From positions 1-20,173 of IMG/VR virus record IMGVR_UViG_3300017788_000233: a stretch of DNA of 20,173 nucleotides; one strand, written 5' to 3'. Positions 14,410 through 20,173 of this stretch are shown piece by piece; positions within the stretch are counted from its first letter, which is position 1, and every line of letters begins with the position of its first letter. The stretch is from a virus. A program made the translations under genes and the position numbers. The notes below the pieces were generated by a model that was not told the origin of the DNA, searched no databases, and saw nothing but the letters and a program-made list of their open reading frames with translations.

Positions 14410-14622
14410 TCAATAAAACTTCCACTTATTTCGTGCAAGTTCTTTTTTAAGCTTTTTTAAAACACTGGGTTTATAAAAACATCTTTTAAGTCTGAGTTCA
14501 TCCAAAACACCAGACCTTAAAAACTCTCTATTAAATTTATTATATGCCTTATCAAAATAAGCCTTATCCAAGCTTTTTTTGCCGTTAAGAACTACTTTTG
14601 CGTTATAATTGTCGGGTTTCAT
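14410..14622 (-). CDS. rpsU: Ribosomal protein bS21 homologue
   Basis: This 70-residue basic protein matches bacterial bS21 (E. coli: 71 residues) in length and pattern. Residues 24-53 include DKAYNKFNREFLRSGVLDEL and then YKPS, against E. coli [20 protein letters not shown] and EKPT. A Lys-rich C-terminal helix (VLKKLKKELARNK) follows. bS21 sits on the 30S platform beside the 3' end of 16S rRNA, where the Shine-Dalgarno is read. Phage copies are known from pelagiphages and other aquatic phages and are thought to replace or supplement the host protein. It is embedded in the replication operon: its ATG overlaps the preceding stop (ATGA) and the next gene starts 2 bases after it. Confidence 0.82.
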   Translation of the reverse strand: MKPDNYNAKVVLNGKKSLDKAYFDKAYNKFNREFLRSGVLDELRLKRCFYKPSVLKKLKKELARNKWKFY

Positions 14623-16278: not shown

Positions 16279-16307
16279 AATATATCAGTTTTTAAGGTTT
16301 TCAACAA
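16279..16307 (-). promoter_or_regulatory. Sigma70-like promoter for the helicase gene
   Basis: On the minus strand TTGTTG (16302-16307), a 17-base spacer and TATATT (16279-16284) with a TG one base upstream (extended -10) end 8 bases before the ATG at 16270. An alternative register is TTGAAA (16299-16304), N16, TATTAT (16277-16282). Confidence 0.5.
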
Positions 16308-16987
16308 TTACTATATTCGCTTAAAAACTTAATTTGACTGTCAGAAAATAACTTATCATTTACATCGAGAAGCCCGGGAGAGGAATGCATAACCCAAATA
16401 GGTGCAACGCCGAGTTTTAACTTTTTCTTATTTGCATCAATACTGCTAGCGATGTCATAGTGATGAAAATTATAATTCTCATTAAACTTCCATCCTACAT
16501 TTTGTACCTTTCTTACATCTATTGATATAAAAAGACCATCAAGAATAGCAACACGAGATGGAGTAGGGCCAAAATTAGTTACCATAATTTGATCTTTACT
16601 AGCTGGGTGTGCAACAGCACCTCTTAAATTACCGCTTCCAAATCCCCCGCACATCAAATGCCATAAAGCTGGTTGTTTAATCTGAGGAACTAATCCCCCA
16701 GCTAAGCCAACAATATCAAACTGAGAATGCGCTCTTTCAAGCTTATCGCAAACATTTACATCATCAACAAAAACGTCGTCGTGTAAGAAAACAATGTAAT
16801 CGTACTTAGACTTATGTTCGCTTACTACATCATTGTAGGCTTTGCTTAGCCCGTCTGTGTTGTTTGCTTTGAAGATAATATTAAAACGTGACGGTATTTT
16901 TTCTAATATACCTTTTAGTGATTTAAACGCTAAAGTATTTTCTACAGTACTTTGTCTTGTACAAAAAAAGAATGCAAATTTCTTCAT
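16301..16987 (-). CDS. GT-A fold glycosyltransferase, family 2-like
   Basis: This 228-residue protein looks like a glycosyltransferase of the StrF/Glyco_tranf_2_5 kind. It has a short N-terminal strand (KKFAFFFCTRQ), GLSKAYN at 46-52, a DxD-like HDDV at 69-72 after strand YIVFL, then DGLFISIDV and a HHYDIASSID segment that would bind the acceptor or metal, and a final HSSPG. It would transfer a sugar from a nucleotide donor; the acceptor is unknown. Its ATG overlaps the stop of the amidotransferase gene by 4 bases (ATGA), so the two are coupled. No signal peptide or membrane helix is seen, so it is cytoplasmic. Confidence 0.82.
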   Translation of the reverse strand: MKKFAFFFCTRQSTVENTLAFKSLKGILEKIPSRFNIIFKANNTDGLSKAYNDVVSEHKSKYDYIVFLHDDVFVDDVNVCDKLERAHSQFDIVGLAGGLVPQIKQPALWHLMCGGFGSGNLRGAVAHPASKDQIMVTNFGPTPSRVAILDGLFISIDVRKVQNVGWKFNENYNFHHYDIASSIDANKKKLKLGVAPIWVMHSSPGLLDVNDKLFSDSQIKFLSEYSNC

Positions 16988-17667
16988 GATGTAAAAAATG
17001 GTGAGTTAAGTTTAAACCTACCTACCGAAGTTATGCCTTCTTTTGTTAATAGATAAACGAACCCTTCTTCTAGCGGAACAAAACCATCTTCCTTTAAAGA
17101 AGAAAATTCATTATTTAGAAAATCAGCATATAATGTGCTGCCGCACCTCGCTAAATAAATGTTTGTGCTTTTTTGATTATAAATCCAAACACCAAAAGTA
17201 CCTTGTAAAGAGGATAAAGTCTTAACTATTGCAGTAATTTCATCTCCTGTTTCCTTGAAATACTTTGCGATTAAAGGTGCAATTACGGAGGAGTCAACAA
17301 CGTTATATGATTTTTTGTCGGTTAAAAGTAGCTTAAGTTGCTTGTCGTTAGTAATAACACCATTATGCGCAATAATCCATTCTTTATATTGAAACGGGTG
17401 GCTTGTGGAGGGAGAAAACTTTCTTTGTGCAGAAGTAGGAGCCTGTGTGTGTCCTAGGAAATAATTAAAATCAGTAATGCTTTTCTTCTTTTTACCGTAT
17501 TCAATAACTAATCGATTAGAAAGATTTGCAGTGCCCGGGCTCTTCAAAATAGCGTGAACTTTAGTATTAAGTAGTAGACCGCCATAAGAAAAAGTGCCTC
17601 TTTTTCTATTACTCTTATATAGTTTAACGTAATTGCTAAACTCTTTAGAACCAAATATGCCGCAAAT
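16984..17667 (-). CDS. Stand-alone class II glutamine amidotransferase, AUU start
   Basis: This 227-residue protein is a complete glutaminase domain of the GlmS/PurF/AsnB type, which frees ammonia from glutamine. Class II enzymes need Cys directly after the initiator Met. Here the frame reads ATT-TGC-GGC-ATA-TTT-GGT (Cys-Gly-Ile-Phe-Gly) 8 bases after a perfect AGGAGG, so the start is taken as ATT at 17667. Later motifs are RGTFSYGG (23-30), GHTQAPTS (72-79), HPF then AHNGVITN (100-107), VDSSVIAPLI (124-133) and LQGTFGVWIY (154-163). No synthase or isomerase domain follows, so ammonia must go to a partner. Starting at the next in-frame TTG (17547) would remove the nucleophile. The gene is coupled to the glycosyltransferase. 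Confidence 0.88.
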   Translation of the reverse strand: MCGIFGSKEFSNYVKLYKSNRKRGTFSYGGLLLNTKVHAILKSPGTANLSNRLVIEYGKKKKSITDFNYFLGHTQAPTSAQRKFSPSTSHPFQYKEWIIAHNGVITNDKQLKLLLTDKKSYNVVDSSVIAPLIAKYFKETGDEITAIVKTLSSLQGTFGVWIYNQKSTNIYLARCGSTLYADFLNNEFSSLKEDGFVPLEEGFVYLLTKEGITSVGRFKLNSPFFTS

Positions 17668-17675
17668 AGAATTTT

Positions 17676-17681
17676 CCTCCT
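17676..17681 (-). promoter_or_regulatory. Perfect Shine-Dalgarno fixing the AUU start
   Basis: AGGAGG on the minus strand, 8 bases before ATT at 17667. It is the strongest ribosome-binding site in the window and decides the start of the amidotransferase. Confidence 0.85.
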
Positions 17682-17686
17682 AAATT

Positions 17687-17714
17687 ATTATAATATAGAG
17701 AATAAATAATTCAA
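17687..17714 (-). promoter_or_regulatory. Sigma70-like promoter for the amidotransferase-glycosyltransferase pair
   Basis: On the minus strand TTGAAT (17709-17714), a 16-base spacer and a perfect TATAAT (17687-17692) lie just upstream of the AGGAGG. The region overlaps the late box of the divergent gene at 17716. Confidence 0.6.
17701..17708 (+). promoter_or_regulatory. T4-type late promoter box for the gene at 17716
   Basis: AATAAATA ends 7 bases before the ATG at 17716, the longest gap of the late boxes here. It lies within the spacer between the -35 and -10 of the divergent sigma70-like promoter. Confidence 0.6.
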
Positions 17715-17715
17715 G

Positions 17716-18615
17716 ATGAACAAAGATGTAAAGCTTATATTCGAAGCTTATTTAACTAAAAAAACCCAGGTTTTAAAAGAAGCACCTATCTATGGCCCGG
17801 GAGACTTAGATTACGGTGGTGATATAACTCAAACACCGGGAGGTGGTTATGGTTTAGGAACTGCTGCAAAACGCGAAGGTAAATCAATTAAAGAGGTTGC
17901 TGGCGAATTATTAAATGCTATTAAGACAAAGCTTTTTAAGCCTGCAGTACATACAGTTGACGGTAAAGAGTATCAATTGTTCTATCCGGGTAGTAAGATG
18001 AAGTTTAGAGCAGATTTAGAAAATCTTATTAAAAACGTGCTTAAAGTGGGGTCCACACAAGCAAAATATACAGCAAGAGTTGTCGACAACTTGTTAAATG
18101 TTGTAAGAATTGATGCAGAGGGAGGAACAGTAGCCGAACCTGCTAAAGTAGATAAGGCTGTCAAAGCAGGGGTTGAAGGTAAACCTGTAACACCAGATGC
18201 AGGTCAACCTACTGTAACTGTTCCATCTACACTTACTTTTGTAAAAAATGATAACGTTAGATTTATTAAAGAATGGCAGCCTATTTTTACTGAACTTCCT
18301 GATGAGATTACCATTGAAAAGGGTGACCTATATGACTCGCCTGAGCTAAAAAATGAGGTTGTTGAAGCAATTACAAGAGCTTTTGATGATAAGATGGCAA
18401 ATGATAAAGAAATGGTTCAAGACTTTATTGACTCATTAAAATATAAAAACAGTTATTCACCTGCTAGCGAGAAAAAAGAAGGTGAAGGTACTGGTGAAGA
18501 GCCAAATATTGAAGAATACCCAGAAGATGACGATGTTACCGGTACCCTTAGGGATATAGGGGCCATTGGTGGGCGTACAGGTTATGATCCAGGTGGCTTT
18601 AGCTACAATGACTAA
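17716..18615 (+). CDS. Unknown protein, probable virion or internal head component
   Basis: This 299-residue protein has the N-terminus MNKDVKLIFEAYLTKKTQVLKEAPIY in two parts: an amphipathic segment like the capsid-targeting peptides of T4 internal proteins, and an L-K-E|A site that fits T4-type prohead protease. A Gly/Asp/Pro-rich stretch and a helical domain (about 55-135; SIKEVAGELLNAIKTKLF, FRADLENLIKNVLKVG) follow. A Pro/Val linker, a second domain (about 175-250) and an acidic Gly/Glu/Asp-rich tail complete it. I do not recognise the family. It lacks membrane segments. It starts below a late box and is followed after 2 bases by the fibronectin-III gene. A head-internal or tail role is inference. 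Confidence 0.78.
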   Translation: MNKDVKLIFEAYLTKKTQVLKEAPIYGPGDLDYGGDITQTPGGGYGLGTAAKREGKSIKEVAGELLNAIKTKLFKPAVHTVDGKEYQLFYPGSKMKFRADLENLIKNVLKVGSTQAKYTARVVDNLLNVVRIDAEGGTVAEPAKVDKAVKAGVEGKPVTPDAGQPTVTVPSTLTFVKNDNVRFIKEWQPIFTELPDEITIEKGDLYDSPELKNEVVEAITRAFDDKMANDKEMVQDFIDSLKYKNSYSPASEKKEGEGTGEEPNIEEYPEDDDVTGTLRDIGAIGGRTGYDPGGFSYND

Positions 18616-18617
18616 AA

Positions 18618-19349
18618 ATGCCTCTGTTTGTAAACTCTAGCGGTTGGAAAACTGTAAAAAATATATTTGTTAAACAGTCTGGTAACTGGCGTAATATAAA
18701 AAACGGTTGGATAAATCAAAATGGAATTTGGAGACAATTCTATGCATCTGTACCCGGTGCACCGACTATAAATTCAATCGCTACTACTTATCCTGACAAC
18801 GTTGTAGCTAATTATTTAACAGTAAGTTTTTCGCCACCAACTATTAATAATACTAATATTACTAGTTATCAATATTCACTCAACAGCGGTAGTTGGGTGA
18901 CAGTTGGTACAGCGACCTCATTTAACATAACTGGGCTTACCCCCGGTACTTCTTACTCTGTAGTATTAAGAGCAGTTAATTCCAACGGTGCTGGTGATAG
19001 TTCAAACACCGCTTCTACTGTAGCGGCCGGTCGACCGCTTCTTCCTGTTATTACTAATACAAGCACACGCGTGCCCTACACGTCTAGGCCGTGTGTATCT
19101 AGATTTGGTGGTTATATAAGCGCGACTGCGACAGCAAATAATAACGGAAGTACTCCTGTTACAATGCAGTATAGAACAGGTACCACGGGCAACTGGATAA
19201 ATGGGAGCAGCTGGTCGGGAGGAACAGTTTGTGCCGGGATGTGCGCAGGTCAAGCTTGTAACACTGTATCTTTTAGAGCATTAAATCCGATAGGCACAGG
19301 TCCAACTATTACGTCTAGTATATGCGTCTTCTGGGGTAATCCATGTTAA
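18618..19349 (+). CDS. Fibronectin-III/Cys-rich surface protein, possible tail fibre or decoration
   Basis: This 243-residue protein has three parts. Residues 8-42 carry imperfect Trp repeats of about 14 residues (W10, W24, W31, W38; FVKQSGNWRNIKNGW), a pattern seen in phage tail and virion adhesins. Residues 47-136 are a fibronectin type III domain (PGAPTINSI, YQYSLNSGSW, ITGLTPGTSYSVVLRAVN). Residues 140-243 look like a second such domain (VSFRALNPIGTGP) with six Cys at 159, 205, 209, 214, 236 and 243. Even Cys number outside the cell suggests disulfides or a metal site. It follows the gene at 17716 by 2 bases, so both are probably late. Host recognition or virion decoration is the likely role. 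Its stop overlaps the stop of queC, tail to tail. Confidence 0.83.
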   Translation: MPLFVNSSGWKTVKNIFVKQSGNWRNIKNGWINQNGIWRQFYASVPGAPTINSIATTYPDNVVANYLTVSFSPPTINNTNITSYQYSLNSGSWVTVGTATSFNITGLTPGTSYSVVLRAVNSNGAGDSSNTASTVAAGRPLLPVITNTSTRVPYTSRPCVSRFGGYISATATANNNGSTPVTMQYRTGTTGNWINGSSWSGGTVCAGMCAGQACNTVSFRALNPIGTGPTITSSICVFWGNPC

Positions 19350-20086
19350 AAAATCTCTTTACACTTATATTTTTCCCAAGGTATTGAGATTTTATAAGGT
19401 ATTGGGTCTATAAAACCGGCATCTATAAATCCTTTTATTCTTAAAGAACATGCAGTGCATTCACCGCAAGCCGCTTCTTCTCCCTCGTAACAAGTCCAGG
19501 TATTCTTAAAATTCACTCCAAGTTTTATTCCTAATTTTATAATTTCTGCTTTAGATTTATCGATTAACGGTGCTTGAACGGTAATTTTATTTCTACGGTT
19601 CAAAGCCGATACTTTGTTGATTTGCTCTAAGAATTCTTCACTACCATCCCAGAACCCTGCAACGCTATCGGCCTGTGCAGCTCCATGAAAAACGGTGCTA
19701 GCCCCCACGTTCTCTGCTATTGCCAGAGATATACTAAGAAGCATTAGGTTACGGTAAGGTACATAGTTTACCGTCTGTGGGTCGCCCATTACATCTTTAG
19801 CTTTAGCAACTGCAATCTTATTATTAAGGAGAGAAGAAACTCGACAAATATCCTTAAAAAATGGTAATTTAATAGATTGATATGTTACAGGCATGTCCAG
19901 TGATTCAATCTGTAAAGTAGCGCACAATAGCTCTTTATCACGGTGCTTTTGCCCGTAATCATAGTTTACAGCTATGATCTCATCATACCTACTAGCAGCT
20001 AAATGTAGTAGGACAGAGCTGTCCATTCCCCCGGAAATAGGGACTACAGCTTTACTCGACAGGTTCTTCTTCGCCTTGCGCTTCAT
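19346..20086 (-). CDS. queC: 7-cyano-7-deazaguanine (preQ0) synthase, QueC
   Basis: This 246-residue enzyme converts 7-carboxy-7-deazaguanine plus ammonia and ATP to preQ0. The PP-loop is at 18-24 (SGGMDSS), near the N-terminus as in the family (E. coli 231 residues). A zinc site is formed by C199, C207, C210 and C213 (TCYEGEEAACGECTAC), and VPYRNLMLLSISLA is the typical central motif. The start at 20086 overlaps the upstream gene end by 35 bases; longer in-frame starts only add the shadow of that gene. In phages QueC usually feeds 7-deazaguanine modification of DNA, and in bacteria queuosine in tRNA. FolE, QueD, QueE and a DNA transglycosylase (DpdA) are not in the window. Confidence 0.93.
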   Translation of the reverse strand: MKRKAKKNLSSKAVVPISGGMDSSVLLHLAASRYDEIIAVNYDYGQKHRDKELLCATLQIESLDMPVTYQSIKLPFFKDICRVSSLLNNKIAVAKAKDVMGDPQTVNYVPYRNLMLLSISLAIAENVGASTVFHGAAQADSVAGFWDGSEEFLEQINKVSALNRRNKITVQAPLIDKSKAEIIKLGIKLGVNFKNTWTCYEGEEAACGECTACSLRIKGFIDAGFIDPIPYKISIPWEKYKCKEIF

Positions 20087-20173
20087 TTGCGTTATACTTG
20101 TATTCTTCAGCCAAGCGCTTGTCGAGTTCAGGAATAATAAATTCCTCGTAGAAAGCGGGATCTTTTGCAAAAG
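20052..20173 (-). CDS. C-terminal end of an unknown protein (cut by right edge)
   Basis: On the minus strand an open frame enters from the right edge and ends in TAA at 20052-20054. The last 39 residues are helical and very acidic (DPAFYEEFIIPELDKRLAEE, ending EEEPVE). It overlaps the start of queC by 35 bases, so the two are probably co-transcribed. No function can be read from this piece. Confidence 0.6.
   Translation of the reverse strand, partial: FAKDPAFYEEFIIPELDKRLAEEYKYNANEAQGEEEPVE

What the first reader, a model, noticed from the sequence alone, without database searches (positions are those of the whole stretch)
16984..17681. Non-canonical AUU start codon in a class II amidotransferase
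Seen: a perfect AGGAGG stands 8 bases before ATT followed by TGC-GGC-ATA-TTT-GGT, i.e. the obligatory N-terminal Cys-Gly-Ile-Phe-Gly of the family. No ATG, GTG or TTG is available in frame at this place, and the next in-frame TTG (17547) would remove the catalytic Cys. Known: AUU starts occur in infC and pcnB of E. coli, where they mediate IF3-dependent control. Inference: the gene may be deliberately weakly or conditionally initiated, with the strong Shine-Dalgarno compensating.
Basis: partly seen in the sequence, partly recalled or inferred. Interest (0 to 1): 0.66.

Follow-up and report, generated by a model that had tools for sequence, protein, structure and literature searches.

The report
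Phage gene that starts with AUU
A phage gene for an enzyme that probably helps modify the phage's DNA really does begin with the rare start codon AUU, and in dozens of related phages that AUU always comes with a strong ribosome-binding site, while relatives lacking such a well-placed site start with ordinary AUG, so initiation of this gene looks deliberately tuned.

Summary
The ATT start is real and conserved. All 15 relatives from a start-unbiased search have ATT immediately before the catalytic Cys codon. Across 78 non-redundant homologues, 44 of 44 with ATT carry GGAGG 8-10 nt upstream; none of 34 with ATG do. The state changes at least 6 times on supported branches, and the SD changes with it each time. 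Base -1 is T in 44 of 44 (zero changes on the tree; neighbouring bases 9-13).

A -10 box (TATAAT) lies 5-6 nt before GGAGG in most ATT forms and mostly 5-10 nt before the ATG in ATG forms, so ATG mRNAs are predicted leaderless or nearly so and ATT mRNAs to begin at the SD. These phages otherwise hardly use SDs.

The protein is a class II glutaminase, probably a stand-alone Gat of the 7-deazaguanine (dG+) pathway, translationally coupled to a glycosyltransferase.

Best reading: U-AUU behind a 5'-terminal SD is an attenuated initiation site, alternating in evolution with leaderless AUG; both types are disfavoured by IF3 in E. coli. Regulation is inferred, not shown. Gating by the phage's own bS21 is a speculative rival. 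Novelty: a new variant of known SD-plus-AUU sites (infC, pcnB, cvfC1).

The parts
16984..17667 (-). Gat: stand-alone class II glutamine amidotransferase, 227 codons, AUU start
   Evidence: Pfam GATase_6 1.1e-10 and GATase_7 1e-6; AF2 pLDDT 92.6, best Foldseek hit GlmS glutaminase 1xff E 3e-12; Cys2 invariant in 59 homologues
17665..17667 (-). ATT start codon
   Evidence: 44 of 44 in the SD-bearing homologues, zero changes at its third base on the tree
17668..17668 (-). invariant T at position -1
   Evidence: 44 of 44, zero changes versus 9-13 at -2 to -5; background 52%
17676..17681 (-). AGGAGG Shine-Dalgarno sequence, predicted to lie at the 5' end of the mRNA
   Evidence: SD:aSD energy -10.2 kcal/mol, ATT-set median -11.6 against -1.4 in the ATG set
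17687..17692 (-). TATAAT -10 box, 6 nt before GGAGG
   Evidence: gap of 5-6 nt in the 31 ATT homologues with an adjacent TATAAT
17709..17714 (-). TTGAAT, -35-like, 16 bp before the -10 box
   Evidence: read from sequence; TTGA-N18-20-TATAAT enriched about 2-3 fold in related phages
16301..16987 (-). glycosyltransferase-like gene, start overlaps the gat stop (ATGA)
   Evidence: Pfam Glyco_tranf_2_5 3e-10; overlap kept in 65 of 77 homologues
14410..14622 (-). phage bS21 ribosomal protein homologue, same strand, 2.4 kb downstream
   Evidence: PF01165 E 2.2e-11; ORF
17701..17708 (+). T4-type late promoter-like AATAAATA of the divergent gene (ATG at 17716), overlapping the gat promoter spacer
   Evidence: TAAATA-to-ATG spacing peaks at 5-6 nt family-wide
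19346..20173 (-). QueC, 5' end cut by the window edge
   Evidence: Pfam QueC 1.8e-56; matches the C-terminal part of phrog_10428, a family also matched in its N-terminal part by the gat protein

Best explanation
The gene starts at AUU, read by initiator tRNA as fMet, which is then removed to expose the catalytic Cys. SHOWN from sequence: AUU is conserved, is strictly tied to a strong SD 8-10 nt upstream and to U at -1, and alternates in evolution with an AUG that has no well-placed SD. INFERRED: the mRNA starts at the SD itself, about 13-15 nt before the AUU, because the -10-to-SD distance equals the commonest -10-to-AUG distance of the AUG relatives (predicted leaderless or nearly so). INFERRED: SD-aSD pairing holds the 30S subunit in place and U(-1) pairs with A37 of the initiator tRNA, partly replacing the lost third codon-anticodon pair. 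The result is a deliberately weak site that sets low production of Gat, and by ATGA coupling of the glycosyltransferase. In E. coli both AUU starts and leaderless mRNAs are disfavoured by IF3, so both forms may keep the gene weak and IF3-sensitive. Gat probably acts with QueC in 7-deazaguanine (dG+) DNA modification.
For: AUU in 15 of 15 start-unbiased relatives. Perfect association of AUU with well-placed GGAGG, 44 of 44 against 0 of 34. At least 6 changes of state on supported branches, single clade rejected p 3e-6, 6 of 6 independent pairs, sign test p 0.031. U(-1) and the AUU third base unchanged on the tree while -2 to -5 change 9-13 times. Promoter geometry. SD energies. In six phage records gat is the only AGGAGG-led ATT frame of 100 or more codons. 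Published precedent: AUU plus extended SD gives about 10% of AUG in S. aureus cvfC1 (PMC13009471); leaderless mRNAs need AUG and are antagonised by IF3, non-canonical starts are discriminated by IF3 (PMC4611024). FolE, QueD and QueC in relatives; QueE read from an ORF; weak matches of a distant gat relative to proteins annotated as archaeosine synthase or QueC-like in Vibrio phages.
Against: No expression data. Transcription starts rest on consensus boxes; 7 of 44 AUU leaders have no TATAAT within 80 nt and 6 have it 37 nt away; 8 of 34 ATG genes have no TATAAT within 60 nt. Two relatives (L131, L132) have AUG with a poorly spaced SD, so the two forms are not wholly discrete. The U(-1):A37 pairing is from general knowledge; the papers found do not document it. 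No TGT/DpdA was found by Pfam, so the DNA-modification role is incomplete.
Confidence: 0.6

Rival explanations
1. Ribosome gating. In a cell whose translation is largely SD-blind, SD plus AUU can be read only by ribosomes with a free anti-SD, for example those lacking bS21. Phage bS21 from the same strand would then switch gat off or on as it enters ribosomes.
For: SD use in these phages equals mock levels, as in a Cellulophaga phage and unlike SAR11, Synechococcus and Sinorhizobium phages; gat is the SD-AUU exception; phage bS21 in the window and 10 of 15 relatives searched; bS21-less F. johnsoniae ribosomes selectively translate SD mRNAs (PMC9976891).
Against: Host unknown; the enriched TTGA/TATAAT promoters are not the Bacteroidota kind; Bacteroidota rpsU uses SD with ATG in 79 of 79; bS21 is also present in G009, whose gat has an AUG and no SD.
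Confidence: 0.15
2. IF3-dependent conditional control as in infC: AUU makes gat expression rise when free IF3 falls during infection.
For: AUU is IF3-repressed in E. coli and leaderless mRNAs are IF3-antagonised (PMC4611024), so both evolutionary states could share it.
Against: No IF3 is encoded by 12 related phage records; no evidence that IF3 changes in infection; S. aureus cvfC1 AUU showed no medium-dependent effect.
Confidence: 0.2
3. Neutral drift: a strong SD made AUG dispensable and AUU is tolerated without function.
For: Start codon and SD strength are known to compensate each other (PMC5622118).
Against: No ATG, GTG, TTG, ATC or ATA among 44 homologues with a well-placed SD though AUG is one step away; U(-1) invariant; AUG to AUU is otherwise about 1 in 61,358 starts.
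Confidence: 0.07
4. Artefact, pseudogene or start elsewhere.
For: A gene caller limited to ATG, GTG and TTG would choose TTG at 17547.
Against: Same ATT in dozens of independent contigs; N-terminus conserved with invariant Cys; purifying selection.
Confidence: 0.02

Closest known systems
Staphylococcus cvfC1 AUU start (PMC13009471)
   Same: Conserved AUU with a very strong extended SD; AUU lowers expression to about 10% of AUG
   Different: Bacterial gene in an SD-using host; no leaderless AUG counterpart described; here a phage gene with an SD at the predicted mRNA 5' end and invariant U(-1)
E. coli infC and pcnB AUU starts
   Same: AUU start; non-canonical starts are subject to IF3 discrimination
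   Different: infC is autogenous control of IF3; these phage records encode no IF3 detected by PF00707
Flavobacteriales rpsU (bS21) SD gene (PMC9976891)
   Same: Rare SD-led gene in an SD-poor genome; linked to bS21
   Different: rpsU uses ATG in 79 of 79 loci, not AUU
Gat domain of phage and archaeal Gat-QueC (PMC6884629)
   Same: Class II glutaminase partner of QueC; folE, queD and queC present
   Different: Separate gene rather than a fusion; DpdA not detected

Membership tests
Class II (Ntn) glutamine amidotransferase | Catalytic Cys directly after the initiator residue | tested here: met
   Cys2 invariant in 59 aligned homologues
Class II (Ntn) glutamine amidotransferase | Glutaminase fold and profile | tested here: met
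Class II (Ntn) glutamine amidotransferase | Conserved His-Asn-Gly and Asp motifs, Arg in HTRWAT | tested here: inconclusive
   HNG and Asp invariant; the HTR Arg aligns with Gln (HTQAPT)
Gat of the archaeosine/dG+ pathway | Works with QueC; pathway genes present | tested here: inconclusive
   FolE, QueD and QueC found by Pfam search in relatives, QueE read from one ORF list, QueC in window; no TGT/DpdA by PF01702; activity untested
SD-plus-near-cognate attenuated start site | Conserved AUU with strong, well-spaced SD | tested here: met
SD-plus-near-cognate attenuated start site | Lower expression than with AUG | not testable with these tools
   needs a reporter assay
infC-type IF3-regulated start | Response to IF3 level | not testable with these tools
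   no IF3 in relatives
rpsU-type bS21/anti-SD control | Host with sequestered anti-SD | tested here: inconclusive
   SD use at mock level but promoter type unlike Bacteroidota phages

The most novel reading that the evidence does not exclude
The gene has two interchangeable initiation modules, AUG on a leaderless mRNA or U-AUU behind a 5'-terminal SD, selected because both are read by a particular ribosome or factor state (low IF3, or anti-SD exposed for lack of bS21), so that gat is switched on or off as the phage's bS21 remodels host ribosomes.
Probability: 0.2. Interest if true: 0.87.

Novelty: new variant of a known kind. Interest (0 to 1): 0.62.

Why it matters
It is a natural experiment in start-site choice: one gene swapped repeatedly between AUG without a well-placed SD and SD-dependent AUU, with a tell-tale U at -1. 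The AUU genes are missed or truncated by start-codon-based annotation, and the system makes SD strength, start codon, IF3 and bS21 effects testable in one short leader.

Tried and rejected
Sequencing error, pseudogene and TTG start: rejected by homologues. A general ATT habit of the phage: rejected, gat is the only AGGAGG-led ATT frame of 100 or more codons in six phage records. Phage IF3: not found. Special initiator tRNA: the CAT-anticodon tRNAs in relatives look like tRNA-Ile2 or elongator (judged by eye), none in the window. Host identification: no gat relative in the 84,980-species genome collection; SD-poor like a Bacteroidota phage but promoters are not Bacteroidota-like, left open. First AlphaFold run with 10 rows was poor (pLDDT 54), repeated with 59 rows. 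The scan was biased to Ile starts and was replaced, whose probes are internal. DpdA by PF01702 not found.

Full report
Observation. The window is a 20 kb phage record of T4-like character: its terminase and replicative helicase match T4-like phages. On the - strand an AGGAGG at 17681-17676 is followed after 8 nt by ATT at 17667 and then by TGC GGC ATA TTT GGT. The upstream frame is closed by a TAG overlapping the SD, and no ATG, GTG or TTG is in frame before TTG 17547. The motif is not expected by chance.

The ATT is conserved. A first scan used probes inside the protein, so it could not favour any start codon; all 15 full-length relatives (70-79% identity) have ATT just before the Cys codon and GGAGG upstream. 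A second, wider scan whose query lacked the first residues gave relatives down to 43%. With a few more distant rows added from the earlier scan, whose probes partly favour an Ile start, this left 78 non-redundant proteins. Of these, 44 start with ATT and all 44 have GGAGG 8-10 nt upstream; 34 start with ATG and none has it in that position. No GTG, TTG, ATC or ATA occurs. On a maximum-likelihood tree the state changes at least six times on well supported branches, a single ATT clade is rejected (p 3e-6), and in all six independent pairs SD and ATT change together (sign test p 0.031). Lineages L116, L128 and L130 share almost the same leader, CAAACAGGAGAGGAGGGTAACRCT-ATT, so the leader may move as a module (inference).

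Two kinds of mRNA start. In ATG relatives a TATAAT box commonly lies 5-10 nt before the ATG (24 of 34, most often 6). In ATT relatives TATAAT lies 5-6 nt before GGAGG in the 31 with an adjacent box. With the usual -10 to +1 distance, the ATG mRNAs are leaderless or nearly so and the ATT mRNAs begin at the SD. This is inference from consensus boxes. Leaderless promoters look common in these phages: TATAAT-N6-ATG, and T4-type late [T/A]ATAAATA-N5-ATG. SD use across the window and eight related records is at mock level (3-10% against 2-15%), as in a Cellulophaga phage and unlike SAR11, Synechococcus and Sinorhizobium phages. Scanning six of these phage records, gat is the only AGGAGG-led ATT frame of 100 or more codons in each. 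So gat is a marked exception.

A further signature. Among the 44 ATT genes the base before ATT is always T, with zero changes on the tree, while -2 to -5 need 9-13 changes; the background before ATG starts is 52% T, and ATG-type gat genes have mainly A or T. I infer that U(-1) pairs with A37 of the initiator tRNA and offsets the lost G:C pair; this step rests on my own knowledge of the tRNA anticodon loop, and the papers I could read do not document it.

What the protein is. Pfam and PDB profiles give a class II glutaminase. The second AlphaFold model (pLDDT 92.6) matches the GlmS glutaminase domain. Cys2 is invariant in 59 rows. Relatives carry FolE, QueD and QueC by Pfam; QueE I read from one ORF list. 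A distant gat relative weakly matches proteins annotated as QueC-like or archaeosine synthase in Vibrio phages, so gat is probably the stand-alone Gat of a 7-deazaguanine pathway (Gat-QueC: PMC6884629). In a group of distant ATG loci gat directly follows the end of a queC-like frame. No TGT/DpdA was found. The gat stop overlaps the start of a downstream gene, the glycosyltransferase in the window, in 65 of 77 homologues, so translation of the two is likely coupled.

Mechanism. Published AUU plus strong-SD sites give about 10% of AUG (S. aureus cvfC1, PMC13009471). Leaderless mRNAs require AUG and are antagonised by IF3, and AUU is discriminated by IF3 (PMC4611024). I therefore read the two forms as alternative weak initiation sites. 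Two relatives with AUG and a badly spaced SD (L131, L132) fit tuning of strength rather than an all-or-none switch. Whether control is conditional is untested. Gating through bS21 is attractive because the window encodes bS21 2.4 kb downstream and bS21-less F. johnsoniae ribosomes translate SD mRNAs (PMC9976891). But the host is unknown: TTGA/TATAAT promoters are enriched here and not in Flavobacterium or Cellulophaga phages, no gat relative lies in the genome collection, and Bacteroidota rpsU pairs its SD with ATG.

Limits. Everything is sequence evidence. The association test has only six independent pairs. Transcription starts are predicted. AUU starts with strong SDs have precedents in bacteria, so I rate this a new variant of a known kind.

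Noticed in passing
window 14410-14622 (-): A phage-encoded bS21 ribosomal protein homologue; also in 10 of 15 related records searched.
   Followed up: partly
L151-L158, L167-L181, L197-L214, window: Sharp spacing of TATAAT-N6-ATG and [T/A]ATAAATA-N5-ATG predicts that many genes of these phages have leaderless mRNAs; HTVC008M shows the N5 spacing too.
   Followed up: partly
window and eight related records: SD use is at mock level although the enriched promoters look like ordinary sigma70 ones; host phylum unresolved.
   Followed up: partly
L116, L128, L130, L133, L136, L137 upstream of gat: Nearly identical SD-ATT leader in different gat lineages, suggesting the leader moves as a module.
   Followed up: no
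L053, L056, L144-L150: In distant relatives gat directly follows the end of a queC-like frame, with TATAAT 6 nt before the gat ATG inside that frame.
   Followed up: no
window gat protein, residues 73-78: The glutamine-binding Arg of HTRWAT aligns with Gln (HTQAPT) in this Gat family.
   Followed up: no
L174 283-688 (-): ARAGORN reports a tmRNA with an unusually long 33-residue tag in a related phage; not verified.
   Followed up: no
L158 17490-17564, L167 10751-10825, L181 19242-19316: CAT-anticodon tRNAs that look like tRNA-Ile2 rather than Met.
   Followed up: no
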